64,000 nt of DNA from Heterostelium album PN500 (lineage: Eukaryota; Evosea; Eumycetozoa; Acytosteliales; Acytosteliaceae), in NCBI RefSeq assembly GCF_000004825.1, contig NW_008805072.1, positions 1,577,146-1,641,145 of the forward strand. The letters run 5' to 3'. The notes beneath the pieces are model-generated. The model did not search any database. It had not been told where the DNA came from and worked only from the letters and a program-made list of their open reading frames with translations. The position numbers and the translations under genes are program-made. This document shows, piece by piece, positions 47,317-64,000 of the stretch (positions are counted from its first letter, which is position 1; the number at the start of each line of letters is the position of its first letter).

Positions 47317-47849
47317 ATCATCAATTTTTTGTAAAATGCACCTATAATATCTAATTTCATTGTTTACAAAAAAGTTTATAGAATTTAATATGTTAGTTAA
47401 TATATTAAACGAATCTATCATATACGAATTTACACAAAATCTGTAATGAAATTAATATAATAATAGAATCAGCATATGTATCCTTAATAGTCGAATAGAA
47501 TAGTTGACTATATGATAGTCACAGCAGTTTAATCTTTTTTTTACCATCCCACATTAATTTTCGACTTCCACCACAGTAATTTTTCAATTTCAAAATTTTT
47601 TTCAAAGTTAACTTGCCAACACTCATATAAAAATTTCAAAACATTGTGTGACGGACATTGTGCAGAACATCGGCTGGGGATTGGTTTTTTCAAATTTGAG
47701 TGAGTCCAAGTTAGTTAGTGGCACGTTTACTAACTTACCCCTTCAGTGAGTTCATTACTTTTCAGTGAGCAAAAAAATGAAAATAATTGCAAATATTTTC
47801 ATTTTATAGATTTTAGAAAAAAATTAATTAATAAAATTATTTAATAAAT
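47317..47849. other. Spacer between the PKS and the truncated hAT gene
   Basis: 533 bp. It contains an inverted pair AAGTTAGT (47708-47715) and ACTAACTT (47729-47736), capable of a small hairpin, and direct repeats TTCAGTGAG near 47744-47768. These may be terminal or sub-terminal hAT sequence, but element ends were not proven. Confidence 0.45.
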
Positions 47850-48203
47850 ATGGATAATTTATTACTATTATCTAAATTAAATAGTATAAAAGATAAATCA
47901 GGTGAGGATTTGAAGCAAAACACACTTTATAGTGATGTTAAACAGTTTTTTACAAAAAAGAGCGAAAAAAACAAAAATATTTGTTTCTTTTGTAAAAAAG
48001 AGTGCACAGCAGATACAGCCCAGCATTGCAGAGAGCACTTGAATACAAAAAGCTGCAAATTGGCACAACAATCACTATTACCAAATAAACTCACAACAAA
48101 CTCAGACTATTTATGTTGTAGATATATAGTAATGTCAAATATTCCATTTTCAACTTTGGAGAACACAGAGTTCAAAGAGTTTCTTCAGTCTCTGAACTTT
48201 TAA
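47850..48203 (+). pseudogene. Truncated hAT transposase, BED-finger N-terminus
   Basis: A 117-residue frame with the usual order of a hAT N-terminus: a basic leader, a BED-type zinc finger (CFFCKKEC...HCREHLNTKSCKLA) and a helix SNIPFSTLENTEFKEFLQSL that normally leads into the transposase body. It then stops. No DDE or dimerisation region follows in the next 780 bp, which lead into the Polinton-like element. It is therefore a 5' remnant of a hAT transposon, or possibly a domesticated BED protein. The Polinton insertion may have removed the rest; that is inference. Confidence 0.7.
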
Positions 48204-48805
48204 ATGAGAGTCATTCTTAAAGGATAGCCATTATTTGAATTTTTTTTTCCTATTTTGTACTCGAACTTTTTCAAATTTGGTTATTTTTAAAAATTAATTT
48301 TAAATAATTAAATTATTAATTTTTTAATCCTCAAATAAGAAATCTTGTTTCAATATATAAAAAGATCAATATATATATCGTGTGTGTGTGTGTGTGTCAT
48401 ATATAGTCGCTCTGCTCCCTATATGTTGCTCTGCTACCTTCGGTTACGCTTCGCAAAATATTAACAGGTAACTCAAAAATGGATACTTTTATAACTTTTT
48501 AAGTTTTCCATAGTTTTCCATCTTACTTTTTTAACACTATTCCTTATTATCTCTTCACCTATCTATCACTATGGAAAAATTATGGAAAACATTTTTTAGT
48601 AACTTTTTAACTTTTATATTTTTATTAACTTTTCAACTTTTCCATAATTTTTCCATACCTATTGAATATTAAGAGAGGAATCGTTAAATCCATCGAAATT
48701 TAGGGTATGGAAAATGTATGGAAAACTTTTTAATTAACAAAAGTTTCCCTTTTTGAGAATACTCTTCATTTGATCTATCATTTGATCATTTGTCTGATTA
48801 AGAAG

Positions 48806-48868
48806 AACGGCCACGTAGTGCGTTGTGGGGGGAGCGTAGCGGAGGGAGCCACTGGTCGAAGACCAACA
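48806..48868. repeat. GC-rich island with hairpin TGGTC-GAA-GACCA
   Basis: About 65% G+C by hand count over 63 bp in a roughly 25-30% G+C context. It holds a perfect 5-bp stem hairpin (TGGTCGAAGACCA, about 48852-48864) and the word GGGGGGAGCGTAGCGGAGGGAG. The sequence CTCCGCTACGCTCC (its complement) resembles CTACCTTCGGTTACGCTTCG 400 bp to the left in inverted orientation. Candidate terminal or origin sequence of the Polinton-like element. Confidence 0.45.
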
Positions 48869-48931
48869 CAGATTATTTATCAACTTTATATCAAATAATT
48901 ATAATCATTAAAAGATGTGGGACAAGAACAA

Positions 48932-48970
48932 CATTGTATTAAACTTTTGAAAAACTATAATTATATAAAT
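48932..48970 (+). promoter_or_regulatory. Promoter-like repeat, copy 1
   Basis: GTATTAAACTTTTGAAAAAC followed by TATAATTATATAAAT, ending 17 bp before the small ORF at 48987. It is the most diverged of three copies (others 49191-49229, 52105-52143). Same strand as the downstream gene. Confidence 0.5.
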
Positions 48971-48986
48971 AAAAGTAATAAAAAAA

Positions 48987-49133
48987 ATGGGTAATGTTAA
49001 CTCAAAAGAACAAAGACAAAAATACCATTTCGTTGAAATGGTAGAAAATGAAAATGGTCAAATGGTCGAAGGGAAGGTTCACTATTTAACTTTAGAGCAG
49101 GCTAAAAAAATGTTTTTTGTATCAAGTTCATAA
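48987..49133 (+). CDS. Small ORF, putative N-myristoylated protein
   Basis: 48 residues. It begins MGNVNSKEQ, which fits the N-myristoylation consensus M-G-x-x-x-S/T. The rest is charged (YHFVEMVENENGQ, HYLTLEQAKK). Upstream is promoter-like copy 1 and a run of A before the ATG, so it is probably expressed. Downstream, 114 bp later, is the helicase. I do not recognise a family. A membrane- or virion-associated role is inferred only from the myristoylation motif. Confidence 0.55.
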   Translation: MGNVNSKEQRQKYHFVEMVENENGQMVEGKVHYLTLEQAKKMFFVSSS

Positions 49134-49190
49134 AAAATAAATTGATAAATATTCTTTTTTTAAGAGGTGTCACCTTGGTCGAGTTTGGAA

Positions 49191-49229
49191 ACTCGTATTA
49201 AACATTTAGAAAAATATAAATATATATAA
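49191..49229 (+). promoter_or_regulatory. Promoter-like repeat, copy 2
   Basis: ACTCGTATTAAACATTTAG then AAAAATATAAATATATATAA, ending 19 bp before the helicase ATG at 49248. It matches copy 3 (52105-52143) at 35 of 39 positions by hand alignment. TATA-like core at its 3' end. Candidate early-gene promoter of the element. Confidence 0.6.
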
Positions 49230-49247
49230 TAATATAGAAGAAAAAAA

Positions 49248-50921
49248 ATGGATACTGAAAAAGTTGTTGAATTATTCAAAAATTTTATCGAACAAAATAG
49301 AGAAATTTTGAACCCAATACCAGTACAGGAGGAAAAGATCACACACACAATTGTTGAAAAGAACTATGATTGGAATAATATTGTTGATAATTATGAAATT
49401 AATGATACTAATGAAAGATTAGAAAGTATCAATGTGAAAGCGGAGGTCGACCAAGAACGACAAGGATTATTTGGCCAATGTAACACTGTATTTGATCGAT
49501 CTAAATTAAGGGAAATGATTCACACTGCAAAAGCCAAGAATGATATTAAAGAAGTTAAGAAGTATATTAAAACCCACTTTATGAAGCTTCAAAACGGATC
49601 AAAACATATGATGTGGTCACCAACTGAAAATTGTTCTAACTATCTTACCAAGCAAGAGATTATTGATAAGCATTTAATCAAAGATCTAAAGAATAACAAA
49701 TTTTATTTCTCTGCTTCAGATTGGTTCTTTGAAGAAGATGATGAGTTTTATATTAGCGGTATGAATCCAAATAAACCATTGTATTATACTCAAAATGGCG
49801 CAAATATGTTTAATCTATTTGCAGGATATAAGTGGACAGATAGAAATTCATTTAATGTTAAAATGAATGAACCAGAGTATGCTGCCCGTATGAAACTATC
49901 AATTGGCGTAATTTTAAATCATATCCGAAAGGTATGGTGTAGTGATAATCAAGATCAATTTGATTTCGTTAAGTATTGGATTACTAGTGTAATTGCCGGA
50001 AGACGTCCAAAGCTTGCCATCTACCTACAATCTGGCCAAGGAACAGGTAAATCAATTATCATTGATTTTATTCGTGATCATGTTCTTGGTGAATCAATTG
50101 TATTCCAATCACAAGATCCATCAATCGTACAACCAGGATCATTTAATGGTCCGTTAGCGGGAAAGATATTAATATCGCTTGAAGATCTTCCAACAAGTTC
50201 TGCAGGTGAATGGAATAAAACAAGTAACTCTATTAAACATTTGATTACTGGTAGCAATATTGTGATTAATGATAAGTTTAAAACCCAGGTAACAATTGAT
50301 AATCATCTATCATTTATTATCACCAGTAATACATCAGCAATTAAAATTGAAGATGATGATAGACGTTATGCAATTCTAGATGTGTCTAATATTTTCAAGA
50401 ATAATAAAGACTATTTTGAATGGTTGGCAGCAAATCATTTAACTTCTGCAGTTGGTGAAGCATTCTATTGGTGGTGTGTTGATAATGTAGATCTTGTTAA
50501 ACAATTTAATCGTGTACCAGATACCCAAACCAAAACTGATATAAAATCTGATCATCTTCGACCACCACTACAATTTATAAAAGAAAATTTTGTGTTGCAA
50601 AAGAATGCATTAGAAATGACACTAAAGGAATTCTATGATAGACTTACGGAATACTGTACCAATAAGAAAATATCATGTCCAACAAAACCACAAACAAAAA
50701 AGATCTTGGGCGAGTATGGTATTGAAACCAAAGAGATGTGTCGTGGAGGTGTTAGCGGAAAGAATAATTGGTTTGTTTACACACACGATCAATTGCTTCA
50801 AATCTATAAAGTTAATAACATGATTAGCAGATTTGACACCTATGAAGATCTATCATTTGGAGAGTTACAAAAAATTAAAATGTTAGAAAAAGAAAATGAA
50901 GAGTTAGAAAAAAGAAAATGA
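49248..50921 (+). CDS. Superfamily 3 helicase
   Basis: 557 residues. Walker A is GQGTGKS at 263-269 (SGQGTGKSIIIDF). Walker B is ISLEDLP with E312-D313. Motif C is SFIITSN near 356-361. These mark the SF3 helicases of small DNA viruses, virophages and NCLDV-like D5 proteins. The N-terminal ~200 residues (with HMMWSPTENCSNYL and the FYFSASDWFFEEDDEFYISG segment) show no archaeal-eukaryotic primase motif I can recognise. The C-terminal ~120 residues (FIKENFVL, LGEYGIETKEMCRGGVSGKN) resemble the winged-helix-like tail of such helicases. It should unwind DNA for replication of the element. Convergent with the integrase remnant, 54 bp apart. Confidence 0.93.
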   Translation: MDTEKVVELFKNFIEQNREILNPIPVQEEKITHTIVEKNYDWNNIVDNYEINDTNERLESINVKAEVDQERQGLFGQCNTVFDRSKLREMIHTAKAKNDIKEVKKYIKTHFMKLQNGSKHMMWSPTENCSNYLTKQEIIDKHLIKDLKNNKFYFSASDWFFEEDDEFYISGMNPNKPLYYTQNGANMFNLFAGYKWTDRNSFNVKMNEPEYAARMKLSIGVILNHIRKVWCSDNQDQFDFVKYWITSVIAGRRPKLAIYLQSGQGTGKSIIIDFIRDHVLGESIVFQSQDPSIVQPGSFNGPLAGKILISLEDLPTSSAGEWNKTSNSIKHLITGSNIVINDKFKTQVTIDNHLSFIITSNTSAIKIEDDDRRYAILDVSNIFKNNKDYFEWLAANHLTSAVGEAFYWWCVDNVDLVKQFNRVPDTQTKTDIKSDHLRPPLQFIKENFVLQKNALEMTLKEFYDRLTEYCTNKKISCPTKPQTKKILGEYGIETKEMCRGGVSGKNNWFVYTHDQLLQIYKVNNMISRFDTYEDLSFGELQKIKMLEKENEELEKRK

Positions 50922-50975
50922 AAAATTAAAGAAAGGTAATTACCTGTCGCTATCAAATGTAAATAAATTCAGTCT

Positions 50976-52098
50976 CTAAATATTCAACACAAAGTCGTCA
51001 AATTGTTCATATTGATTAACAATATCTGGTACATCTTCCATCAACTTTGTTTTCAATTCCCATGTGTTATCTTTTGGATCATCATAACCACGCCATTTAA
51101 CCAGATAATACCATCTATTTCCAATCTTCTTTTTTGATAATATTTTTTCCACAATGTATTCATCTGGTTCCCCACGAATAGTTGATGGATGAGGTTTTTT
51201 TTCGCCTGGTTCTACTATCTGTAATTGATTGCGAGTATATGGTATGTATGGTGGTGAAATTACAAAGTACATTGGTGGCTTTCCTGGTTCTAATAATATT
51301 CTATCTATCTTTGTAGGTTTTGGATTCCATCGAATATCTGATGCTCTAAATCTACCTGCCAATTTGGTGGTTGTTGATTCGTTTGTAATCGCCGATGTTA
51401 ATGTAGCTGTAGTGACATCTATAGGTTCATCTAATTGTACTCTAACAATAGTACCTTCCTTTAATAAATCCTGACCGTCACCTAATGGTTTATCTGGTAC
51501 TTTCTTTTTTAATCTATCTCTTTCTTCTTTATCTCTGTTGTATCTTTCATTGATAGCTTCAATAACAAGCGGAAGATCTTCTACCCATGATATAGACTTA
51601 GTACCTGTTAGTAACTCTTCTGCAGTCATTCTCATAAAGAGTAACTTACCTATGATCTTATTACGTTGCTCAACCAGTGCTTGTTGGCGATGTCTACCAG
51701 GCCGACCATAACGAATATAAATACCTTTCTCATCGAAATATCTCTTTACTACTCCTTTGAACTCTGATCCTGGGTCTGTTTGTATCATCTTTGGTAAACT
51801 AATTATGCGACGTTCATAGATTTCAATAAATGCACTTTTCACTTTTAACTGCTTCTGCCGATTTTGCTTTTAGTGCTACTGCATCTGTTAATCTACTACC
51901 TAAATCAACTACTACTAATGCATATTTATAACCATTGTCAACTGGGAGAAATAATAAATCTGCTTGTTGTTTATCATTTTCTTTAAACTCTAAGATATGT
52001 GGTGTTGTTTTATTATTATCTTTTTTTGGTATCTTAAATAAATTTGATAATTCTTCATTCTCATCATTTTTTTTTAAATTCTTTTTATAAAAATCCAT
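50976..52098 (-). pseudogene. Polinton-type chromodomain integrase, frameshifted
   Basis: Two overlapping frames on the minus strand, 52098-51823 (91 residues) and 51842-50976 (288 residues), together encode an RVE-family integrase. The first has the opening Asp strand (QADLLFLPVDNGYKYALVVV). The second has IQTDPGSEF (second Asp) and ALVEQRNKIIGK (Glu) of the DDE core, then a linker and a C-terminal chromodomain (EYIVEKILSKKKIGNRWYYL, then VKWRGYDDPKDNTW). This order is typical of Polinton integrases. The frame breaks at an exact 7-bp tandem duplication, CACTTTT twice at 51833-51846 on the plus strand, so the enzyme cannot be made intact. No zinc-binding N-terminal domain is seen. Confidence 0.92.
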
Positions 52099-52104
52099 TT
52101 GAAA

Positions 52105-52143
52105 ATTCGTATTAAAGATTTACAAAACTATAAATATATATAA
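52105..52143 (+). promoter_or_regulatory. Promoter-like repeat, copy 3
   Basis: ATTCGTATTAAAGATTTAC then AAAACTATAAATATATATAA, 73 bp before the PolB ATG at 52216 and just upstream of the divergent integrase start. It matches copy 2 at 35 of 39 positions. The strand agrees with PolB, so it is unlikely to be the integrase promoter. Confidence 0.6.
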
Positions 52144-52215
52144 AAAGTTACAAGTCATAAACTACTACTTTAATATTAATAATATTTTAATTAAATAACA
52201 ACATACAACTGAAAA

Positions 52216-54291
52216 ATGAATAGAAGAATAAGAGGAGTTGAGCAACCAACTAATCTTGTAAGATTTGGTATGCAAATGAGACAGTATCGATATGTATCAA
52301 GAGGAGGTCCTGTTACCAGACAACAAATTGAGCAAAAGGCTCAGGAACTAAGCAATCGATTGCATGCAAGGGGTGAAAGAGGTGAAATTCAATTGGCACT
52401 AAGATTTGATGATAATTGGAGAAATAGTAAATTTACAAAATTAGGAAATAGAGTATCTTTGTATGTCTTGAATGATGAAAAAGGATCTGATCGAATGCTC
52501 GATGAACCAGACGATGGTTTTCAAGAGTTTACTTTTTATGTAATTCCTGACAGAACAAGAGCTGGAGGTGCCAAAAGCGGAAGAACGACCTTAAATGACT
52601 GCCTTTATGATTGCTTGAAAGAAGTCTATGCGGATGATCTCAAACTTACACCTGAACAATTTAAAGCTGAATTGGGTTTACAACGTAATGATCCTGTACC
52701 AATTGATCTTTTACACAAGGTTGAGGAATTATTACCAAAAAAACCTTCAATAATTGTTTCAGGTGACCATACCTATGTAGGTGAGTCAAAAAAATCAAGA
52801 ACAATTAGACTATCCCTCCGCAATGGTCATTACACTCTTGACAAAAGTAATCGTTTGAGTGCAAAGGGTATTTCGTTCAAAGAAAGAAAACCAGTTGCCT
52901 ACTTTAGACATCACGGCCGTGATGATGTTACTGTTTCATTCTATGATGGAAAATTATATCAAATTAATTGTTTTGAAGATATAAATCAAAATGACATCAA
53001 ATTTGATTTTGACTTTCATTTAAGTGAAACCTGTAAAACAATGTCTTCACCATATTTATTCATCAAGTGTAAATCTCTTGATGAGATGGAAGAAAAATAC
53101 AACTCATTTATAAGAGTTGCTGATATTATTAAAAAAGAAACTAAAGATTTAGTTAACTACTATAAGTATGGTAATGTAAGACAATCAGCAACTCATTTAT
53201 TGCTTAAAACACTTCCAAAAGATATTGAGATTGAAGATGTAAGTGCGGAAGAATCCTATTGGATAGAACAAGCAACAATGTCTGCGATGATATATTCAGT
53301 AGATCACTATGAAGGACCACTATATAAGTATGATTATAAAGCAATGTATGCGTGCATAATGAAAGATTACAGATTTCATATTCCAATTAAAAGAGGTACA
53401 TTCAAAAAACTATCTCAAGACGAATTTAATAATTTAAAATTCTATCAATATGGTATTTATCATGCATCAATCAATCAAGAGGTTGGCCAAGAACGACTAT
53501 TTAAATTCAATCAAAATGATTATTACACACACATTGATCTTACTAGAGCAAAAGAATTGGGTTTACAAATAAATATAATAAATGATAACAATGCAAATGT
53601 ACTAGAATGGGATCCTCAATCGAAGATTAGTTGTGATATTATATTTGGTAATTTAATTGAAAAAATATTAAATTGGATAAAGAATGCCACAGATGATGAT
53701 GTTAAATTAGAATATAAAATGATGTATGCTCAATTGTGGGGTTATCTTGTGAGAAAAAGAAAACAAACAATCTATGATCCAGGTATGGATAGTATGTTTA
53801 AGAAAGAAGATTCTATCAATAGATCATCAAACAAAAGTAGATCATTTGTAGGTGTGGATAACTATGAAGAGGGTGATGATTATCATATGATTGAGAGTAC
53901 TGTTTATATCTATAATAATCAAAAGATTGAAAGCATAGTACCACATGAACGATCAAATAAAATAATTTTATCATATACCGACAATGTGTATGAAACCCCT
54001 TTCGCAAGATTAAAACCATTTATAATAGCAAAAGGAAGATCGATGATCAGTAAAATTATGATAAATGGCTTACAATGTGAACCCAATGATGTTAATAATT
54101 ATATTAAAAGAGTTCACACAGATGGCTTTTATTCAACTAAAAAATTAAATTTTAACACCCACTCAAAAGGTAAATCACATGCGATTGATGATGTTCAAAT
54201 AGGTGTTGCACCAGGCGATCTAAAATATGAGGGTTACACAGAAAAAGTAATCATTGAAAAATTCAAGAAAGTTTTGGGAGAATTCAAGTAG
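52216..54291 (+). CDS. Protein-primed-type DNA polymerase B
   Basis: 691 residues. N-terminal region (TTLNDCLYDCLKEVYADDLK, SIIVSGDHTYVGESKKSRTI) resembles the N-terminal module of Polinton polymerases. Polymerase motifs: A, YKYDYKAMYACI with D373; B, KMMYAQLWGYL with K501; C, VHTDGFYST with D636, where the usual first Asp of DTD is His. I cannot find the three 3'-5' exonuclease motifs between about residues 230 and 370. At 691 residues it is shorter than typical Polinton polymerases (often about 1,000 or more). It may be a compact, exonuclease-poor enzyme or one that has lost part of the exonuclease domain. No frameshift is seen. It should copy the element by protein priming. Confidence 0.85.
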   Translation: MNRRIRGVEQPTNLVRFGMQMRQYRYVSRGGPVTRQQIEQKAQELSNRLHARGERGEIQLALRFDDNWRNSKFTKLGNRVSLYVLNDEKGSDRMLDEPDDGFQEFTFYVIPDRTRAGGAKSGRTTLNDCLYDCLKEVYADDLKLTPEQFKAELGLQRNDPVPIDLLHKVEELLPKKPSIIVSGDHTYVGESKKSRTIRLSLRNGHYTLDKSNRLSAKGISFKERKPVAYFRHHGRDDVTVSFYDGKLYQINCFEDINQNDIKFDFDFHLSETCKTMSSPYLFIKCKSLDEMEEKYNSFIRVADIIKKETKDLVNYYKYGNVRQSATHLLLKTLPKDIEIEDVSAEESYWIEQATMSAMIYSVDHYEGPLYKYDYKAMYACIMKDYRFHIPIKRGTFKKLSQDEFNNLKFYQYGIYHASINQEVGQERLFKFNQNDYYTHIDLTRAKELGLQINIINDNNANVLEWDPQSKISCDIIFGNLIEKILNWIKNATDDDVKLEYKMMYAQLWGYLVRKRKQTIYDPGMDSMFKKEDSINRSSNKSRSFVGVDNYEEGDDYHMIESTVYIYNNQKIESIVPHERSNKIILSYTDNVYETPFARLKPFIIAKGRSMISKIMINGLQCEPNDVNNYIKRVHTDGFYSTKKLNFNTHSKGKSHAIDDVQIGVAPGDLKYEGYTEKVIIEKFKKVLGEFK

Positions 54292-54310
54292 TGATCATCG
54301 AAAACAAAAA

Positions 54311-54350
54311 TCTACTAAGATCTACTAGAATCTACTAAAATCTACTTAAA
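54311..54350. repeat. Four tandem 10-bp repeats
   Basis: TCTACTAAGA, TCTACTAGAA, TCTACTAAAA and TCTACTTAAA lie head to tail just after the PolB stop. Iteron-like, function unknown. Confidence 0.85.
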
Positions 54351-54420
54351 AATTCCACTATAAAATGAAAAAAATTAAAAAAAAATTCCACTATAAAATG
54401 AAAAAAAATTAAAAAAAAAA
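54351..54420. repeat. Two tandem ~35-bp repeats
   Basis: AATTCCACTATAAAATGAAA followed by an AATTAAAA tract occurs twice in a row, with small A-run length differences. It follows the 10-bp iterons in the pol/zinc-protein gap. Confidence 0.8.
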
Positions 54421-54479
54421 TTCATACCATTTTTTTTGTTCTAAAAATATATAAATATTTTATTCCCTTAAGTACACAC

Positions 54480-54896
54480 ATGACACACTCCACTCAAACC
54501 AACTCTCTCCCACCTTATGTTGGTAAGACTCCAGTCGTATTTTGCCAACGACCCGAAGGTTGTGTTAAAAAACCTGCCAAAGGTTCAAAGTATTGTTCTA
54601 AATGTAAGCAAGTCATGAATGACAGGAAGATGAAAGCCGGACCCAAAAAGATCAAACAAGCAGTTGTCAAATTTGTAAGTGGTGTGCAAACAAAGTTATT
54701 AATGGAACGAACTCTGTGTGATGCCCATGTACAAATCAACGCGATGAAGCCATATATCTATCAAGCGAAATGTTTACAGTTGGAAAATAAGATTTCATTG
54801 GAGAATAGCAAGGGAGTACTCCCAGCCCCACTCCACGATGAATTGGATATCTCTTCTCTGAATCTTGGTAGCAACTATGAAGTGGACTCAGATTAA
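54480..54896 (+). CDS. Small zinc-binding-type protein, unknown
   Basis: 138 residues. Four cysteines with spacing CQRPEGC...YCSKC (residues ~22-43) may bind zinc, followed by a basic segment (KMKAGPKKIKQAVVKF). The tail is acidic (DELDISS, YEVDSD). I do not recognise the family. Codon use is less AT-biased than neighbouring virion genes, so it could be host-derived or a recently acquired regulator. It lies in the pol-protease gap of the element. Upstream is an AT-rich TATA-like stretch but not a good copy of the 39-bp motif. Confidence 0.55.
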   Translation: MTHSTQTNSLPPYVGKTPVVFCQRPEGCVKKPAKGSKYCSKCKQVMNDRKMKAGPKKIKQAVVKFVSGVQTKLLMERTLCDAHVQINAMKPYIYQAKCLQLENKISLENSKGVLPAPLHDELDISSLNLGSNYEVDSD

Positions 54897-55252
54897 AACA
54901 TAACATTTCAGCAAACTTTACTAAACTAAATTGTTCTTTGCCAAAATATTCGTATTGCGGCAAGTCAATCCATGTCATGTCTCTATTTCAATCTAAGCTG
55001 TCTAAACCGGTCAATATGTCGTCCATATCTGTAGTACCCATATTTGTCGTCCAAATCAGAAGCACTGTATCCAATCAATTTGTCATCATATCGGGAGTAT
55101 CATTTGTCATGTGTACTGTGGTGGTATCCAGTACTTAAGGGATTTTTTGAAATGCAAAGAGTGTACCTCCTCGTGGTGCATTTTGGTAACTTTGTTTTAA
55201 CAAAGGCTAAACACTCTAATCAATTAATAAAATATTTAAGCGTCGTTTCGCT
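54897..55252. other. Gap in the element with a short minus-strand open stretch
   Basis: 356 bp. The minus strand has a stretch without stops, about 54985-55110, reading a Tyr/Asp/Arg-rich sequence (RYDDKLIGY, DLDDKYGYYRYGRHIDR), but no ATG context or homology is clear. It may be a degraded gene. Similar frames on the plus strand look like noise. Confidence 0.3.
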
Positions 55253-56914
55253 TCAAATAAAACCAAATTTTTTATAATATGTTTTCATTGCATTGGCTTT
55301 TTTTTCCTCCACACTAATATCACTCCACCCTGTACAATCTTTAAATGGATGACCATTGTATCTGTTTATTAAAAACTTGATTGCATGATAACCGCAATTC
55401 GTTGAGTTTGATCTTTGATCGATAATTTTATTAACTTTAAATTTAAGATAAGTTTCAGGTTTAATCTTTTTAATAAGTTTATTTATTTGTTTCATGAAGT
55501 CATCAGTGGGTTCTTCGCCAAATGAGTCGTAATATTCAAGCGTCTTGTCACTTACTACGCTCCGATCTTTATCTTGGTGTGCGATACGGTCATCCCGACC
55601 ATCTATATAACATGCAACCCAATGACTACCTGGTTGATCTGATGGATCAAGATTCATTATGAACGACATCTTCTTATTTGCGGGAAGTGAACTAACCATG
55701 TCGCTTGGGATAACGCCAACAAAACCACGATCTTTATAAGGTGCCATGATCTCTTCAATCTGGTAATCATATAACCCTGAACCGTTGCGACGGTCTATCA
55801 CGCTTTCATCAGAAGAACTACCTTCTTCTAACCTCTTTTGATCATTCCTATCACCTTCGCCGATGATGGGTATCTCGAGATCTGGTTCATAGTATATAGA
55901 CATTCCACCTTGTTGTTGCGGTGGTTGAACAAGATCGACAGGGAGTGCTACATTCCTTGGTTGAGGTTGGAAGCTCATATAGATTTCCTTTAACATATCA
56001 TTTCGTCTGTTGTAATCTCTTGATCGTTCTAATTGACTATAAATATGCATGATATTATTAAAATTATCAGTGGTTAGTCGATTACTGAATGATTTGAGTA
56101 ATTGAGCAAATCCTTTTTCATTTTTCTTTGTTACACTACCTTTTTGTTTATCATTCATATCTTTAGTATAATATTGGAATGATTCAAATGGGTTATTTAA
56201 TGGAATGCTCGACAAACCAGTTATATTTTTTCTATTAATGAATTGATTTATCTGTTCTTTTATTTGCTCTTTCTCTACTTCATGTCTCGCTTCTATAATT
56301 TGTTTCTCAAACTTTTCTTTATTTACTTTCATTAAATCTTCAATAATAATAAAATTCTCTTCTGCTTCTCTTGCTTTTCTCTCTGCAACTTCAAACTTTC
56401 TTCGCCATTCATCATCATCTTTTTGATTAGCTTCTAAACTATTTAACTCCATCTTTGCCAATCTCTCATTAGTCAATGCTAAGTTTGCTGCCATCTCATC
56501 TCTTTGTTTTTGCTTTTCTGCTCTTGTTTGTATTTTTTCTAATTTATCATTATTATCAATATTTAATTTTTTGTTCATCGATGTTTTTATTTCATCCAAT
56601 TCTTTTTTTATGATAGGATCAATCTCCACTAAAATGGGTTGATCAATTTTTTTATCATCAATTGTTTTCCTTAAAACCAACTCTCTAAAGTTATTATCAT
56701 TAATCGATCTAATTAGATTAAAATCAGGCATCTGATCTTGTTCGAAGCGGCTAGTGAGCAAAGCACGTTTATAAAGCTCATTTATTATTTCATTATCGGA
56801 TTTCTTTGATTCAATGTATTTTTTGTGTTTACCATTTTTTATATACCTTCTATTTTTATAATCTTTGTACAATTTTGGAGGTCTCAAACGTTGTTTCCTT
56901 TTAGAACCTGTCAT
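55253..56914 (-). CDS. Adenovirus-type/Ulp1-like protease with N-terminal coiled-coil extension
   Basis: 553 residues on the minus strand. The C-terminal ~170 residues are a C48/C5-type cysteine protease: GSHWVACYID with H431, LEYYDSFG with D463, DQRSNSTNCGYHAIKF with Q500 and C507. This is the H-D-Q-C order of adenovirus and Polinton proteases that process virion proteins. The first ~370 residues are unusual: a basic start (KRKQRLRPPK), then a long charged coiled coil (KMELNSLEANQKDDDEWRRK and on), and a Q-rich linker. Polinton proteases are usually short, so this is probably a fusion with a scaffold or core-like protein; this is inference. It may self-process or position the protease in the virion. 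Confidence 0.9.
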   Translation of the reverse strand: MTGSKRKQRLRPPKLYKDYKNRRYIKNGKHKKYIESKKSDNEIINELYKRALLTSRFEQDQMPDFNLIRSINDNNFRELVLRKTIDDKKIDQPILVEIDPIIKKELDEIKTSMNKKLNIDNNDKLEKIQTRAEKQKQRDEMAANLALTNERLAKMELNSLEANQKDDDEWRRKFEVAERKAREAEENFIIIEDLMKVNKEKFEKQIIEARHEVEKEQIKEQINQFINRKNITGLSSIPLNNPFESFQYYTKDMNDKQKGSVTKKNEKGFAQLLKSFSNRLTTDNFNNIMHIYSQLERSRDYNRRNDMLKEIYMSFQPQPRNVALPVDLVQPPQQQGGMSIYYEPDLEIPIIGEGDRNDQKRLEEGSSSDESVIDRRNGSGLYDYQIEEIMAPYKDRGFVGVIPSDMVSSLPANKKMSFIMNLDPSDQPGSHWVACYIDGRDDRIAHQDKDRSVVSDKTLEYYDSFGEEPTDDFMKQINKLIKKIKPETYLKFKVNKIIDQRSNSTNCGYHAIKFLINRYNGHPFKDCTGWSDISVEEKKANAMKTYYKKFGFI

Positions 56915-56946
56915 TTTACTTAAGAAAAAATAATTATTAAAATAAA

Positions 56947-57372
56947 TTAAATTGTCTTTTTCCCCTCTAATACCAAAGAAAATCTCATTCTATAGTTAGT
57001 TGGATTGATCGGTTGATTGTTTGTATCAATTTCTATCAGATTAAAGTCATATGTACCATTTATATTTATATTACTATGATTTTGATATCTTTGTTTTGTA
57101 TATATATTGGCGGCAGTAAATTGTTCACCATCTCCTGTAACACATGGCAATGTAACAATTGAACCAATTCCTAGCAAATTTGTTTGAATAGAAAGTTGTG
57201 CGATAGGTGTATCAGCCCGATCTTCAAGATTTACTAATATATCATAGGATATTAAAGTTATTTGATCTGGGGTAAAAGGAAAGTTAATAGGTATGGACAA
57301 TGATGATTTATCATCTTCATAACTGCTAAAGTAGCCTGTAATTATCTTAGTTTGAGTTATTGTTCTTGTCAT
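56947..57372 (-). CDS. Small beta-rich virion-block protein, unknown
   Basis: 141 residues between the protease and the major capsid candidate, same strand. Alternating hydrophobic and polar residues (ITGYFSSYEDDKSSLSIPIN, ITLISYDILVNLEDRA, YRMRFSLVLEGKKTI) suggest a beta sandwich, possibly a minor virion protein or a single jelly roll. No family recognised. Position suggests co-expression with capsid genes. Confidence 0.6.
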   Translation of the reverse strand: MTRTITQTKIITGYFSSYEDDKSSLSIPINFPFTPDQITLISYDILVNLEDRADTPIAQLSIQTNLLGIGSIVTLPCVTGDGEQFTAANIYTKQRYQNHSNININGTYDFNLIEIDTNNQPINPTNYRMRFSLVLEGKKTI

Positions 57373-57464
57373 CGTTATCGTTCTTGGTGGATGACAGCTT
57401 TTCTTTGATATATATCAAAAAATAAAAATATTATTTTTTTATTTTTGCAATTAACCTTGATTCT

Positions 57465-58817
57465 TTATATTATTGCCAATCTTGGTTTTCCTCCGCTTCC
57501 ATCAGTTATAAATAGACGTCTTTTTGTTACCGCAACAATTTGATGTTGTAGATTATCAGCATGGCCAGCCACAAGATTGCAAGTAAAATCGAATTGTACA
57601 TCATTACCAGTAAGCGGAATACCTTTGTAAATGTTATCTAAGATTTCAGATGAAACTCCTTGACCAAAATCTTGAACCCAAGTCCAATTATAGTTATTAA
57701 TGTTTGGTGTTTGTATAGTAGTACCCTCAAGTAATTTACTATTCATATCAAAGTCATCGTATCTATTTGGATATACATTATAAATAGTCAATGGTTCATT
57801 ATTTAGAGATGTAGAGAAATAATCAATAAAGTTAGTGGCCAAATTATTGTTATAAACAGATAGATTAGGGTTTGCAGCATTATTTGGAGTAAAGATACTA
57901 TAATAGATTCTATCAAGTGTAATACCATTGCTTGCATTATAACGGGATTGGCATGATTGTGAGCTACCATTAGTAAGTTTATTATATGGTTGGGTATATG
58001 GAATTATCATTTGTAATCCTTGAGGTGATGCAAGTTGTTCTAGTAAATCATTGGTGATATTTTTGTTGGTTTCATTTGCTAAATGTATCTCCAATTTAGT
58101 AATATTGGATTGATTTAATTGAGCAGGATTTTCGGTTGGGTCATCTCCCGCATAGAAACCTATACATGAAAGTGGATTCCAAGTAAAAACAACATACATA
58201 TTTTCAGAAAAACATAGATCTTTGTCCAGAGCAAAAATAGAATCAAATATATCAGCAAAATAAATCTTTACATTTACCGTAGTGGGTTGGTTATTTGTGT
58301 CTGCAGCAATCAAATATGCAGGTTCAGTATAAGATCTATCACCATGTGAGTTATCATATCTTATATTTTGGTCAGCTGGTTTATTTGATGAAAAGCATGG
58401 TGTAAAAGTGATTTTATCACCAGCAGCATTTACTTGCAAATCACAATATCTACTTAATGTTTTTGAAAGTTTTCTATTAATTTTCATAGTCATCTTTGAT
58501 TGTATATGGGCCTGTTTAATGTCTGAGCAAAATGCTTGGGTTCCATTACCAAAAGTAATTTGTTGGAAGAATGAAATAAAGTCTGCAAATAAATAGGGCG
58601 ATAAATTATTTCCTCCGGCAGGAATAGTCAAGGTAAATTGCAACCATGATCTAGATAGATTAAATGCTGTATTGGGTGATAGAATAAAAGTGGTTGTATT
58701 TCCGCCTGTGTTTAAAAAAGTGGAGCTGCTATCTTGTGGATTTATTATTAAGTATTTATAAGATGGTTCTGAAACTCCCGCAGGTTCATAATTTATTTCA
58801 TTAGATACAGAATACAT
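57465..58817 (-). CDS. Major capsid protein candidate (double jelly-roll type)
   Basis: 450 residues on the minus strand, just after the minor capsid candidate. It has features of Polinton/PLV major capsid proteins: a start with Tyr/Asn-rich beta strands (YKYLIINPQDSSSTFLNTGG, FILSPNTAFNLSRSWLQFTL), a conserved aromatic-rich middle (YFADIFDSIFALDKDLCFSE, VFTWNPLSCIGFYA), and no predicted TM or enzyme motif. Length and position next to the minor capsid and near the ATPase and protease fit. A double jelly-roll fold is inferred from context and needs structure prediction. Confidence 0.75.
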   Translation of the reverse strand: MYSVSNEINYEPAGVSEPSYKYLIINPQDSSSTFLNTGGNTTTFILSPNTAFNLSRSWLQFTLTIPAGGNNLSPYLFADFISFFQQITFGNGTQAFCSDIKQAHIQSKMTMKINRKLSKTLSRYCDLQVNAAGDKITFTPCFSSNKPADQNIRYDNSHGDRSYTEPAYLIAADTNNQPTTVNVKIYFADIFDSIFALDKDLCFSENMYVVFTWNPLSCIGFYAGDDPTENPAQLNQSNITKLEIHLANETNKNITNDLLEQLASPQGLQMIIPYTQPYNKLTNGSSQSCQSRYNASNGITLDRIYYSIFTPNNAANPNLSVYNNNLATNFIDYFSTSLNNEPLTIYNVYPNRYDDFDMNSKLLEGTTIQTPNINNYNWTWVQDFGQGVSSEILDNIYKGIPLTGNDVQFDFTCNLVAGHADNLQHQIVAVTKRRLFITDGSGGKPRLAII

Positions 58818-58863
58818 TTAGGTCTTTCTTGAATGGTTCTCTTTTTTAATTATATATTATTTA

Positions 58864-58884
58864 TAAATTTATAAAATAAAAATT
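58864..58884 (-). promoter_or_regulatory. T-rich late-type motif before major capsid gene
   Basis: On the minus strand AATTTTTATTTTATAAATTT, about 47-67 bp before the capsid ATG at 58817. It resembles the sequences at 59737-59760 and 60937-60960. In AT-rich DNA this could be chance. Confidence 0.3.
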
Positions 58885-58885
58885 A

Positions 58886-59713
58886 TTATTTATTTCTTTC
58901 TTCCTCAATCTCTTTATGAATCTGATAGTGTATAAAATCTTTTTGTAAATCATAGTTATTATCATGTTTAAAAATCATCAAAGTAAAATTAAGATCAACT
59001 CCATTTAAATCTACTATATTATCATCTCCATCGGTTAAATAAAAATTAAAATAATTTTGTTTATTTGATTTTAATTTTTTACAATATGATTGAACATCTG
59101 TATTCTTCCAATAGATATATGAGTAATCAGGAATGCCACTTGATGCATAAATTTCTTGCAATATGTCATCATTTCCATTGGTACAAATATCGCTATGAAT
59201 ATAAAGAACATTATCTCCTTGAAGATTAATAACATTTAATGATTTTAAAATTCCACCTATAAATAAATTGCTTGAGTCTTTATTAAAACCTAGATGACGA
59301 TACATTTGATTTTTAAAATTAAATGATATATTTCCTTCTCCATTACAGGTAAAAACAAACTTTCCGTCGTTTGGTTGTTTTGATGTAGGCCAATTTATGG
59401 TGTATTTATATCCATTGGGAGATAGTTGATTTAGTAATTGAAAAAGGGTTTCCTGTAGAGATGTTCTTGAATAATTACCTATCGGGATTGATATTAAAAC
59501 TTCTTTATTTCTTTCTTTTAATGTAAAAGAATTTAGATTCTTTCTTATTGTGTAAAAAGATTTCGGAATGGTTGCTTGTGTTATTACAACTCTATCATAG
59601 TTCATGGTGGAAATGAAACCTAAATCTTCTAAATGATATTGAAAATTAGAACTACTACCATTTGTTCTATCTGCAGAATCAATGTAAAATAAAGTTTTGT
59701 TATTGAAATTCAT
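58886..59713 (-). CDS. Minor capsid (penton) protein candidate
   Basis: 275 residues. The opening LFYIDSADRTNGSSSNFQYH and IPKSFYTIRKNLNSFTL, a middle IPIGNYSRTSLQETLFQLLN, and the closing NFYLTDGDDNIVDLNGVDLN then FTLMIF are typical of Polinton/PLV single jelly-roll penton proteins (the VDLNG-x-x-x-x-FTL ending is a strong landmark). It forms the fivefold vertices of the virion. Divergent from the 128-residue ORF with a 64-bp AT-rich spacer. Confidence 0.85.
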   Translation of the reverse strand: MNFNNKTLFYIDSADRTNGSSSNFQYHLEDLGFISTMNYDRVVITQATIPKSFYTIRKNLNSFTLKERNKEVLISIPIGNYSRTSLQETLFQLLNQLSPNGYKYTINWPTSKQPNDGKFVFTCNGEGNISFNFKNQMYRHLGFNKDSSNLFIGGILKSLNVINLQGDNVLYIHSDICTNGNDDILQEIYASSGIPDYSYIYWKNTDVQSYCKKLKSNKQNYFNFYLTDGDDNIVDLNGVDLNFTLMIFKHDNNYDLQKDFIHYQIHKEIEEERNK

Positions 59714-59736
59714 TTTAATAGTATAATTTATTATTA

Positions 59737-59760
59737 AAATTTTTATTTATTATATTTATA
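59737..59760 (+). promoter_or_regulatory. T-rich late-type motif, copy A
   Basis: AAATTTTTATTTATTATATT, ending 18 bp before the ATG at 59778. Its first 15 bases are identical to copy B at 60937. A TTCTA also occurs just before both ATGs. Candidate promoter of the morphogenesis genes; AT-rich background makes it uncertain. Confidence 0.4.
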
Positions 59761-59777
59761 TAAATAGTAATATTCTA

Positions 59778-60164
59778 ATGATGGACAAAAGATCAATAAG
59801 TTCTTCTAAAAATTTAGAAAAAGCTAGAGCTGCAAAAGCTCAAAAAAAAGATACAATAATGTATTTGGATGACGATTTACCAGTTGATGAGAAAAATATT
59901 GAGAAACCTATTCCCGATAAAGTAGTTGTGAATACCAACATCCCAGATATGCTTGTTTTAGAAAAAAAACAAAAAAAAATAGAAAAGTATAAAGAAAAGA
60001 ATAACCATATTTTAGAAAAATTAGATGAAATATCAAATTTTATTTTCTCAAATAAAAAAACCCAAAATGAATCAGCTCCAAAAAGAAGATTTATTAAAAC
60101 CGATAATAATTGTGAAGACTTTAGTACTGTAGTACATTATAGAAATAATTTATTAAATAAATAA
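59778..60164 (+). CDS. Small charged protein, unknown
   Basis: 128 residues, two in-frame ATGs at 59778 and 59781. Lysine-rich with a coiled-coil-like centre (EKKQKKIEKYKEKNNHILEK) and an acidic start (DDDLPVDEKNIEKP). It ends 20 bp before the packaging ATPase, same strand, so the two are probably co-expressed. No family recognised. Confidence 0.6.
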   Translation: MMDKRSISSSKNLEKARAAKAQKKDTIMYLDDDLPVDEKNIEKPIPDKVVVNTNIPDMLVLEKKQKKIEKYKEKNNHILEKLDEISNFIFSNKKTQNESAPKRRFIKTDNNCEDFSTVVHYRNNLLNK

Positions 60165-60184
60165 AATTTGTTTTTCTTTATTAA

Positions 60185-60934
60185 ATGTATGTTTATAAAA
60201 AAAATAATATAATAGTAAAACCATTAAATAGTGGTTCTAAAAATAAATTACCAGTTTTAGGAGATGATCTTTTTTCTTTAAATTCTGCAAATATCTTTAT
60301 TTGTGCTCCAAAGAAATCTGGAAAAACAAGTGTTATAAATAAAATATTGGAAGAATGTGCTGATATTGATACCAAAGTATTTATATTTTGTGCTACCGCT
60401 TATAAAGATGATAATTGGATTACAATAATTGAAAGATTAAATAAAAAAAACATTTCAAATATAGTTTTTACTTCAATTTTTGATGATGAGAATAAAAACA
60501 GATTAAAAACTTTAATCAATAGATTAAAAGATGAAGATGAAGAAGATGAAGATATAAAAAAGAAATATGAATATCCGGAATATATCATAATATTTGATGA
60601 TTTATCAAATGAATTAAAAAATAAAATGATCCCACAATTAATGAAAATCCATAGACATTTTAGGATGAAAGTAATAATTAGTTCTCAAAATTGGAAAGAT
60701 ACTCATTCAGATATTCGAAAAGGAAATTTAGATTATATTTTATTATTTAGAAATATACCTGAAGATGTTCTTGAAACTATATATGATGAAAACCCTTCAT
60801 ATATTGGATATAAAAAATGGATAACTGCTTATAAATATTCAACCAAAGAACCATTTAATTTCTTTTTCTATGATAGAAATGATATTAAATTGGGTAAAAA
60901 TTTTAATGAAGACCTATCCTTTAAAGAAGAATAA
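60185..60934 (+). CDS. FtsK/HerA-type genome-packaging ATPase
   Basis: 249 residues. Walker A is APKKSGKTSVI (residues 41-51) and Walker B is YIIIFDDLS (132-140) with the two acidic residues. A following SSQNW segment (VIISSQNWKDTHSDIR) fits the sensor region. This is the A32/packaging ATPase of Polintons and NCLDVs, which pumps DNA into the capsid. Length is normal for the family. Confidence 0.92.
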   Translation: MYVYKKNNIIVKPLNSGSKNKLPVLGDDLFSLNSANIFICAPKKSGKTSVINKILEECADIDTKVFIFCATAYKDDNWITIIERLNKKNISNIVFTSIFDDENKNRLKTLINRLKDEDEEDEDIKKKYEYPEYIIIFDDLSNELKNKMIPQLMKIHRHFRMKVIISSQNWKDTHSDIRKGNLDYILLFRNIPEDVLETIYDENPSYIGYKKWITAYKYSTKEPFNFFFYDRNDIKLGKNFNEDLSFKEE

Positions 60935-60936
60935 TT

Positions 60937-60960
60937 AAATTTTTATTTATTTTATATTTT
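60937..60960 (+). promoter_or_regulatory. T-rich late-type motif, copy B
   Basis: AAATTTTTATTTATTTTATA, ending 24 bp before the ATG at 60984, with TTCTA shortly before the ATG as in copy A. Candidate late promoter. Confidence 0.4.
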
Positions 60961-60983
60961 TCAAAGATATACACATTCTAAAA

Positions 60984-61172
60984 ATGCCACCAAAAAGAAC
61001 TAGACGAACACAACAAGGAGATGGTTTCCTTGATTGGATTAAAAAAGGAAATCAATGGTTAAAAGATAAAAAAGTAATTTCAACAGTAGCAAATGCACTA
61101 GGTTCTCAAGGAGCAATACTCCTAAATATAATAAATAAATACTCAACTCAAATATTAAATTTGAATATTTAA
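60984..61172 (+). CDS. Tiny basic peptide, possible virion core or membrane-lytic peptide
   Basis: 62 residues starting MPPKRTRRTQQGDG, then an amphipathic-like stretch (FLDWIKKGNQWLKDKKVI) and a Gly/Ser bend (ANALGSQGAILL). It resembles in layout the small basic core or membrane-lytic peptides of adenoviruses and related elements; this is inference. QQGDG is close to the adenovirus-protease cleavage pattern (x)xGx-G, so the neighbouring protease might cut here. The stop is followed by AT-rich DNA; it is probably the last gene of the element. Confidence 0.55.
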   Translation: MPPKRTRRTQQGDGFLDWIKKGNQWLKDKKVISTVANALGSQGAILLNIINKYSTQILNLNI

Positions 61173-62161
61173 TATTTATTATAAATATATATCAAATATA
61201 TTTTAATATAAATATTAAATAAATATAAACTTTATTAAATTTATAGATCTATAAATTAAATAATTTTCTAAACCTCGATCGGTTATATCAATAAAATTAT
61301 TATTAAATGTTAATATAACAACACTATGTGAATGAATTGAAGTACGATATAATTGAATTGAATTATTTAATTTTATAATAACACTAATTAACACATTTTT
61401 CACTTTGACATACAAAAATACATATGTATATATTCATATTTGTATGATTTTTTTGAAAAATACAAATAAAACAAATTATTTTTTTTTCATATACATATAG
61501 TTCATTGACTGTTTATACCATTATAAAAGGATCAAGATATTAAATGAATGTTTAGGAGTTGAATTGATTCGTGGTGCGTTGTACTTGTACGGAATTTAAT
61601 TGGTTAACTTAATCTATTTGAAAAACATACCAGTGTGTAGAAATTTCAAACTACATATGTCATACTATATGTCATACAGTCATTGACTAATTACATATAT
61701 AATAAAATAGTTATATCACAGTCTGTGAGACTATATAGTAGTCGGTGTATAGTATTTAAATTGCTAATACACCAAAAAATACATAAAGTCAAGTGATTAA
61801 AATCAAAAAACGTTTTATAAACTATATATGATATATGACATACATATTCACATGTGAAATGTAGTATAAATTTTTTAATTTCAATAGTATTACTGATATT
61901 ATTTGATTTATTATTTAACTCTTGTAACTATTTGAATAATATGTTTTCAAACACTAACTTTGATCATAAATTTGGTATATGTGCGATGGGGAGGTAAATT
62001 CAAGATTTTGAAAAATATTTATCAAATATTTAACAATATTTATGAATTTTTTTTAAATTTATTTTTTGATTTCACATTTATTACAATTATAAATTTTTGA
62101 TTGATTCAGTGTTAGAGTTTTAGAATTTATTAATAATAATTAATTTTATAATAGTTATAAA
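61173..62161. other. Right flank of the element, with short repeats
   Basis: 990 bp, AT-rich, no gene seen. Direct repeats of TATGTCATAC (about 61656-61679) and TCATTGACT (61502 and 61679 areas), and a nearly inverted TATGACATAC near 61836-61846. A CAGTG at 61631 could be a hAT-type terminus. Neither a Polinton terminal repeat nor a target-site duplication could be confirmed by eye. Confidence 0.45.
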
Positions 62162-63930
62162 ATGAGTGAAAAATATCACCCTTATAGTTCATCTGATAAA
62201 GAAATAAAAAAAAGATCCAATAAATATAATAGTTCTATTTATGAACACTTTTTTAAATTTATAGATTCGAATGATAAGAATTTAATTAAAATGAAGTGTA
62301 AATACTGTCAAGTATTTACTTTTAAATACGATAAGGTAGACAAAAAATCAGTGTCTAGTGGTTTAGGATGGGCACATCTTGAGAGTAAGATTTTTAAATT
62401 TAACAAAATAATAACAATTTCAAGTGATCTGATTGTCCTATTATATTTCTTTCTCTATAATTTTTTTATAGATGTGAGATTATCTTGCCACAAAGAAAGT
62501 GAAATAGATTGGTCGTATGTCGCAGAACAAAAAAGGAAAAAAGCAGAAACACTTGCACTTGCTATATCAAAACCTTTTAGTCAAGGTGTATCAGAGTATG
62601 TATATATGATCTTAAATTGAATATTCAATTATTAACTATATTAAAATAGGGAATTATTAATAGATTTAGTAATCAAAAAAAATCTTCCCTTCAACTTAAC
62701 AGAGGATGAGAGATTTAAAAATTTTATTTCATCGTTAAGACCAGAGTTCAATTTAGTTGGTGGAGATACTATTAAAAATAGAATAATAAAAAGATATGAT
62801 GATCAAGTTGTACAACTCAGAGAGTATTTCAAGACTATGGATTCCAAAATCAGTTTCTGTTTCGATATCTGGAGTGTCAAGGATATCTCTTTTTTGGGTG
62901 TAACTGGTCATTGGATCGATAGTCAATTTAAAGCTAGAAAGTGTTTGTTAGGAATGGAGAGCCTAAAAAGCGATAAAACAGGTAGGTATTGTAAAATGAA
63001 TTTTTAATTTACAATTTATTAATTCAATCAAATATTATTTTATTAACATGATTCAGGTATAACTCTATCAAAACTTTTTTTTGATGTTATAGAAAAGTTT
63101 GATATCTCCAAAAAGATAATGTGCACCACTTCTGACAACTGCTCGAACAACCACACTACAGTGGAGAACATTGTCAAAAACCAAGATCCTTCCAATGATT
63201 ACAAAGGATTCCAGGGTGGACATATTTTATGTTTAAACCATGTGATTAATTTAGGTAAGTGAATATAATAAAAATAATACATTAGCTATTCAAGTTGTAT
63301 AAAAATAAAAAAAATATTAAAATATTAATATTTTGTTTTAAACAAACAATTTGTTCCTATACATCATTGAATTTATTAACCCTTCTTTTTCAGCAATAAA
63401 AGCATTTATAGGAGATAAATCAACGAAATATCTTTTCGATAAAATTCACTCCTATGGTTCAAATTTAAGAAACTCCAGTAACCAAACAGATGCTTTTTTT
63501 GGGTAAGAAACACAATTATAATTTTTTTTTTTACATAATTAATAAAAAATTTTAAAATTTTAGAATTTTCGAAATTCTAAAAACTGAAAAGAAGGACAGG
63601 TTAAAGCCAAAAGTATTGAACCCAATCCGTTGGTCATCTGCTTTTCAGATGACTAGTAGATTCATCAGGATCAAAGATGCAGTTGATTACGACATTAAAT
63701 ATAAGATTACGAAACATGATATCCATCTCACTACCGATGAATGGGATATCATCAAACAAATCAATAAATTCTTGGATGGTGTGGATTTTATTACTTTGGC
63801 ATTACAAGGAGCTGATGTTAATCTGTCTTGCAGTTTACCTGTGTATGGTCGGCTCTTGGACATTGGAGAGGAATGGAAAACCAATAAGATTCTCAAGACT
63901 GCTGCTGAAGCCTTTTGGAAAGAAATAGAT
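62162..63930 (+). CDS. hAT-family transposase with BED finger, 3' end beyond window
   Basis: Six exons visible: 62162-62384, 62472-62595, 62650-62981, 63057-63254, 63394-63502 and 63564-63930, giving 451 residues. All introns have GT...AG ends and a continuous frame. BED-finger cysteines are MKCKYC, then HLE...SCHKES. The DDE fold shows ISFCFDIWSVKDISFLGVTG (first Asp), CTTSDNCSNNH (second Asp), HILCLNHVINL and NPIRWSSAFQM, the usual hAT landmarks. The final Glu and the dimerisation domain would lie past 63930, and the last visible donor (gtatgt at 63931) shows the gene continues. It looks intact so far, so this may be an active or recently active element. It sits about 1 kb from the Polinton-like element. 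Confidence 0.88.
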
Positions 63931-64000
63931 GTATGTAATCATATTTTATTAACATTTGCATTTTCAAATTTGAAGGTTTTTTAAAAAAACTTTTTTTTTT

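What the first reader, a model, noticed from the sequence alone, without database searches (positions are those of the whole stretch)
48204..61250. Polinton/Maverick-like element with a full virion gene set in a social amoeba
Integrase, protein-primed-type PolB, protease, penton, major capsid candidate and packaging ATPase all occur in one 13-kb block without visible introns. This is the virus-like gene set that defines Polintons, here with an added SF3 helicase and several unassigned small genes. The left-replication/right-virion layout is clear. It is the strongest candidate for an undescribed system in the window.
Basis: partly seen in the sequence, partly recalled or inferred. Interest (0 to 1): 0.85.

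Follow-up and report, generated by a model that had tools for sequence, protein, structure and literature searches.

The report
Broken Polinton-type virus in social amoeba
A small DNA virus with a full set of shell genes once inserted itself into the chromosome of a social amoeba and is now interrupted by another mobile element; the element was already reported in outline, and what is added here is its full extent across two scaffolds.

Summary
The host is Heterostelium album (Polysphondylium pallidum) PN500. A "Polinton" of this host is in Yutin 2013, Paez-Espino 2019 and Bellas & Sommaruga 2021, the last giving it a VC20-type capsid. I add the anatomy. The element starts near 48381, not 48204. 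At 61113/61114 a hAT-like transposon with near-identical copies elsewhere cuts it, and the scaffold ends inside that transposon. The missing right end opens scaffold C25: transposon end, the same 8-bp target duplication, the in-phase rest of the cut core-like gene, a fibre-like gene, a GIY-YIG-like gene, and the right inverted repeat. Together about 14.75 kb, with ~594-nt repeats showing two one-base gaps and no substitution. Capsid and penton models match double-jelly-roll capsids and virophage/giant-virus pentons. Seven genes searched have one full-length place each. The integrase is in two frames. A promoter-like motif precedes replication-side genes only. Relatives occur in Cavenderia, Acytostelium and a Dictyostelium discoideum assembly. 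This copy is a young, probably defective provirus.

The parts
48381..48974 (+). Left terminal inverted repeat, 594 nt; partner is C25:1881-2476 inverted (596 nt): 0 substitutions, 2 gap columns
48936..48960 (+). Promoter-like motif copy 1, inside the repeat, so also ahead of the GIY-YIG-like gene on C25
48987..49133 (+). Small ORF, 48 aa, unknown
   Evidence: read; no family over cut-off
49195..49219 (+). Promoter-like motif copy 2, ahead of the helicase
49248..50921 (+). SF3 (D5-like) helicase, 557 aa
   Evidence: Pfam DUF5906 4.1e-19; phrog_1156 DNA primase 6.1e-22; SF3 name recalled
50976..51788 (-). rve integrase, C-terminal part: second D and the E of the DDE triad by eye, chromodomain
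   Evidence: Chromo 1.4e-11
51823..52098 (-). rve integrase, N-terminal part, in another frame than the C-terminal part
   Evidence: rve 0.0038, 17.9 bits against cut-off 32.6
52109..52133 (+). Promoter-like motif copy 3, between integrase and PolB, pointing to PolB
52216..54291 (+). Family B DNA polymerase of the protein-primed type, 691 aa, catalytic residues kept
   Evidence: 18 rows incl. itself, 4 of 18 carry PF03175; D373, K501, T635-D636 invariant in 16 sequences (motif names recalled); no Pfam hit of its own over cut-off
54480..54896 (+). 138-aa ORF, Cys-rich N-terminal part by eye, unknown
   Evidence: no family over cut-off; the stretch 54292-55252 has only two short 80% hits elsewhere in the genome
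55253..56914 (-). Cysteine protease (Ulp1/adenain type) with long N-terminal extension, 553 aa
   Evidence: Peptidase_C48 9.7e-7; in PDB only weak matches, ASFV S273R 0.2 behind synaptotagmin 0.019
56947..57372 (-). 141-aa ORF next to the MCP, unknown; virion protein candidate by position
   Evidence: no family
57465..58817 (-). Major capsid protein, double jelly roll, 450 aa
58886..59713 (-). Penton (minor capsid) protein, 275 aa
59778..60164 (+). 128-aa ORF, unknown
   Evidence: no family over cut-off
60185..60934 (+). Packaging ATPase (A32-like), 249 aa
   Evidence: Pox_A32 1.7e-4, 21.6 bits against cut-off 22.8; phrog terminase 1.5e-5
60984..61113 (+). First 43 codons of a small basic core/pX-like protein (name by eye), cut by the transposon
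   Evidence: the rest lies in phase from C25:455
61106..61113 (+). 8-bp target duplication of the transposon, identical at C25:454-461
61114..64000 (+). hAT-like transposon, left 2887 nt of about 4.9 kb, runs off the scaffold end
   Evidence: 99.9% copies on C32 and C25; 100% over 1048 nt at several places; 8-bp duplications and inverted ends; no hAT Pfam hit for two ORFs tried

Best explanation
A single integrated Polinton-type DNA virus (PLV group VC20 by its capsid, as published), about 14.75 kb, lying across scaffolds C11 and C25. Inferred life cycle from gene families: the rve integrase inserts a linear genome; PolB copies it by protein priming from the inverted repeats with the help of the SF3 helicase; replication-side genes share a promoter-like motif; MCP, penton, protease, ATPase, core-like and fibre-like proteins build and fill an icosahedral particle. 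This copy inserted recently (repeats without substitutions) and was then probably disabled by an integrase frameshift and a transposon in the core-like gene. Shown here: gene content, folds of MCP and penton models, repeats, transposon junction, one copy found. Inferred: replication mode, particle formation, loss of function, recency.
For: Gene families; MCP and penton folds; inverted repeat pair across scaffolds; C25:1-453 is 100% identical to the right end of complete copies of the same transposon, followed by the same 8-bp target duplication as on C11 and by a frame in phase with the cut gene; one full-length place for each of seven proteins; relatives in other dictyostelids and unnamed sequence sets; published reports for this host.
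Against: No target duplication of the element itself was seen, and the genomic repeat broken at the left edge does not resume beyond the right edge, so a later rearrangement, or two copies, is possible. The rve and ATPase hits are below Pfam cut-offs. The MCP model is of low confidence. The integrase frameshift could be an assembly error. There are no expression or particle data.
Confidence: 0.88

Rival explanations
1. Two separate copies: the C11 element lacks its right end and the C25 piece is the end of another copy.
For: The flanks outside the two repeats do not match and no target duplication of the element was seen. The transposon is multi-copy, and another contig (C22) also begins near the same transposon end.
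Against: The transposon's 8-bp target duplication is identical on both scaffolds and the cut frame continues in phase; no second copy of seven proteins was found; only one other place carries the inverted repeat.
Confidence: 0.08
2. A virophage in the strict sense (depends on a giant virus), i.e. a mavirus relative in a social amoeba.
For: INT and PolB group with Mavirus-type virophages in print; the order helicase-INT-PolB is as in mavirus (recalled); the penton's six best Foldseek rows in PDB are mavirus.
Against: The MCP is published as VC20-type PLV; by VIA-align the penton is as near or nearer to PBCV-1; a profile of the MCP family found no virophage MCP by sequence in PDB at E up to 10, which is inconclusive. 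No giant virus of this host is known to me; one paper calls Dictyostelium a potential giant-virus host.
Confidence: 0.15
3. An element long reduced to transposon life, in which the virion genes are no longer under selection.
For: Integrase in two frames; transposon in a virion gene.
Against: The large virion frames are open and the inverted repeats carry no substitution, so the damage looks recent.
Confidence: 0.07

Closest known systems
Heterostelium album and Acytostelium subglobosum 'Polintons' with VC20-type MCP (Bellas & Sommaruga 2021, PMC7805220)
   Same: Same host; MCP with PolB and RVE within 10 kb; by the one copy found here, inferred to be the same element
   Different: The passages I read mention no inverted repeats, transposon, second scaffold, fibre or promoter motif for it; I did not see figures or supplements
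Mavirus and endogenous mavirus-like elements (EMALEs)
   Same: Helicase, rve integrase, PolB, protease, ATPase, penton fold; INT and PolB grouped in print
   Different: MCP published as VC20-type PLV; dependence on a giant virus unknown; one copy found
Classical animal Polintons/Mavericks
   Same: PolB, rve integrase, protease, ATPase, double-jelly-roll MCP, penton, terminal inverted repeats
   Different: MCP 'highly diverged' from known Polinton MCPs in print; GIY-YIG-like gene by eye; target duplication not found. The SF3 helicase is not a difference in kind: some Polintons have one

Membership tests
Polinton/Maverick (by gene content) | Protein-primed type family B DNA polymerase | tested here: met
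   Relatives with DNA_pol_B_2 in 4 of 18 rows, key residues invariant in 16 sequences; the window protein itself has no Pfam hit over cut-off
Polinton/Maverick (by gene content) | rve (retroviral-type) integrase | tested here: met
   Weak rve 0.0038 (below cut-off) and chromodomain 1.4e-11, three acidic residues by eye; the frame is broken
Polinton/Maverick (by gene content) | Cysteine protease and A32-like packaging ATPase | tested here: met
   C48 9.7e-7 over cut-off; Pox_A32 1.7e-4 just under cut-off; phrog terminase 1.5e-5
Polinton/Maverick (by gene content) | Double-jelly-roll MCP and jelly-roll penton | tested here: met
   the MCP model is of low confidence
Polinton/Maverick (by gene content) | Terminal inverted repeats of some hundred bases | tested here: met
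   594/596 nt, C11 and C25
Polinton/Maverick (by gene content) | About 6-bp target duplication (recalled) | tested here: inconclusive
   None seen; the ends lie in a GT run and the flanks look rearranged
PLV, VC20 group (by MCP) | MCP of the VC20 clade | not tested
   No VC20 sequences at hand; stated for H. album in PMC7805220
Virophage (Lavidaviridae) | Virophage-specific MCP | tested here: inconclusive
   No virophage MCP by sequence profile in PDB; by fold Sputnik and mavirus match as giant-virus capsids do
Virophage (Lavidaviridae) | Dependence on a giant virus | not testable with these tools
   needs infection experiments

The most novel reading that the evidence does not exclude
Dictyostelids, including Dictyostelium discoideum, carry a recent, lineage-wide family of hybrid viruses that joins a mavirus-type replication block to a VC20 capsid block, with a two-class promoter programme (a shared early motif before the helicase, INT/PolB, the GIY-YIG-like gene and a small gene, none before virion genes), and some copies still answer an unknown giant virus of social amoebas.
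Probability: 0.2. Interest if true: 0.75.

Novelty: already known. Interest (0 to 1): 0.4.

Why it matters
The element is on record, so its existence is not news. The added anatomy shows how a transposon split a published 'Polinton' between two scaffolds and hid its right end. It gives inverted repeats without a substitution (a recent insertion), a fibre-like gene and a promoter-like motif found exactly only in this element. Capsid and penton relatives on D. discoideum contigs of one length, if part of an intact element, would put such viruses in a genetically tractable host, where dependence on a giant virus could be tested.

Tried and rejected
Inverted repeats inside the window: (44000-64000) showed no pair joining the element's ends; one search compared 47316-49250 with 60931-64000: best inverted score 44 (60 shuffles: mean 34, maximum 41), an AT-rich 57-nt match at 47796-47852/63534-63590, outside the element, not taken as its ends. 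Pfam DNA_pol_B_2 in the own genome rang nowhere, nor in the 14 controls: uninformative. IMG/VR scans with the MCP and PolB alignments confirmed no relatives (patterns may miss). Phage records: no PolB match. PDB by sequence: none for MCP or PolB profiles. Penton tree: six dictyostelid rows need two changes, 28% of bootstrap trees one; one origin not excluded. H. album pairs with D. discoideum (95/90), but that row is a long branch and a partial model. Fibre-like and GIY-YIG-like names rest on reading the sequence: Pfam supported neither. NCBIfam added nothing.

Promoter-like motif: the exact pattern is in 4 places of 32.9 Mb, all in the element; one further place at one mismatch and 25 at two; the reversed control gave 27 at up to two mismatches against 30. 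The pattern was drawn from the element itself, two of the four sites are the same repeat, and for the window 2 of 100 shuffles reached 3 matches at up to 3 mismatches. Suggestive only.

Full report
Where it is. The MCP search returned PPL_12645 of Heterostelium album PN500 with a longest contig of 1,641,145 bases, the length of the window's contig. The window is the last 64 kb of that scaffold (C11).

What is in the block. From left to right: 48-aa ORF (+), SF3 helicase (+), rve integrase in two frames (-), PolB (+), 138-aa ORF (+), cysteine protease (-), 141-aa ORF (-), MCP (-), penton (-), 128-aa ORF (+), packaging ATPase (+), start of a small basic core-like protein (+). PolB keeps residues that are invariant in 16 aligned relatives. 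The integrase halves are in different frames, so it is broken or the assembly is wrong there.

Ends. No inverted repeat pair at the element's ends exists in the window. DNA searches of the flanks explain why. From 61114 on, the sequence is a multi-copy repeat with copies at 99.8-100%, a hAT-like element of about 4.9 kb, of which 2887 nt lie here before the scaffold ends. The only other place found for the left-end sequence 48369-48974 is C25:2489-1881, inverted, 99.0%. C25:1-453 is 100% identical to the right end of complete copies of the same transposon. Then come the same 8-bp duplication as at window 61106-61113, the rest of the cut core-like frame in phase, a 343-aa fibre-like ORF (591-1622 +), a 93-aa GIY-YIG-like ORF (1600-1881 -) and the repeat. 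As controls, a complete transposon copy elsewhere on C25 has a perfect 8-bp duplication and the C32 copy has none. The repeat proper, 48381-48974 against C25:1881-2476, shows 0 substitutions and 2 gap columns in 596. Without the transposon the element is about 14.75 kb (12,733 + 2,015 bases, own arithmetic).

Against this: left of 48380 a 178-bp genomic repeat is broken off, its expected continuation is not found beyond the right repeat, and no 6-bp duplication was seen. The flanks have probably been rearranged, or two copies are involved.

Copies and relatives. Seven proteins were searched in the genome; each has one full-length place, itself. Penton relatives: 18, of which 5 are dictyostelid (Cavenderia 3, Acytostelium 1, D. 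discoideum 1); the other 13 come from unnamed jgi, lgn and ena sets, which I labelled metagenome. D. discoideum ACTFIT_008971 (penton) and ACTFIT_008973 (MCP) have the same longest-contig length, 2,224,335; the PolB search listed no D. discoideum protein. Listings for Dictyostelium with Polinton or PLV (4 papers, 24) show no title on a D. discoideum element; I read passages of only some of them.

Promoter-like motif. A 25-place pattern occurs exactly four times in the genome, all in this element: before the 48-aa ORF, before the helicase, between integrase and PolB, and in the right repeat before the GIY-YIG-like gene. In the window no further match appears at up to 3 mismatches, so no virion gene there has it. 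Limits are told under Tried and rejected.

Literature, as seen. Yutin 2013 (PMC3671162; passages and section 6), Yutin 2015 (PMC4642659; passages), the rumen virophage paper (PMC4409740; passage), Paez-Espino 2019 (PMC6905037; passage), Bellas & Sommaruga 2021 (PMC7805220; passages), the cryptophyte PLV paper (PMC12220804; passages), an amoeba genome paper (PMC11702301; passages), Bellas 2023 (PMC10120064; passages: 0 occurrences of Dictyosteli-, Heterostelium or slime in the main text), the virophage taxonomy paper (PMC9952930; passages), and the Cafeteria EMALE paper (PMC10945749; passages). The last suggests that retrotransposon-interrupted endogenous virophages can still reactivate, so the transposon alone does not prove this copy dead.

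Verdict. A real, already reported Polinton-type provirus with a PLV-type capsid. What I did not find in the passages read is its complete extent, its interruption and its motif.

Noticed in passing
window 57465-59713; P0001, P0027: The public gene model PPL_12645 runs penton and MCP together as one protein with pieces skipped; the Cavenderia model DFA_02942 also runs penton into MCP.
   Followed up: partly
window 61114-64000; C32, C25, C12, C14, C10, C39: A hAT-like transposon family of about 4.9 kb with near-identical copies, so recently active in this genome.
   Followed up: partly
window 47682-48201 and 48202-48379: Two further genomic repeats abut the left end; 48202-48379 has 95-98% copies on C7, C25, C2 and C3 that continue differently.
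   Followed up: partly
window 48472-48757: The terminal repeat holds an internal inverted repeat, 46-nt arms, 78% complementary.
   Followed up: no
Dictyostelium discoideum ACTFIT_008971 and ACTFIT_008973: Penton and MCP relatives on contigs of one length in a D. discoideum assembly.
   Followed up: no
window 41887-47316: A large ORF (1809 aa) that looks like a polyketide synthase by eye lies left of the element.
   Followed up: no
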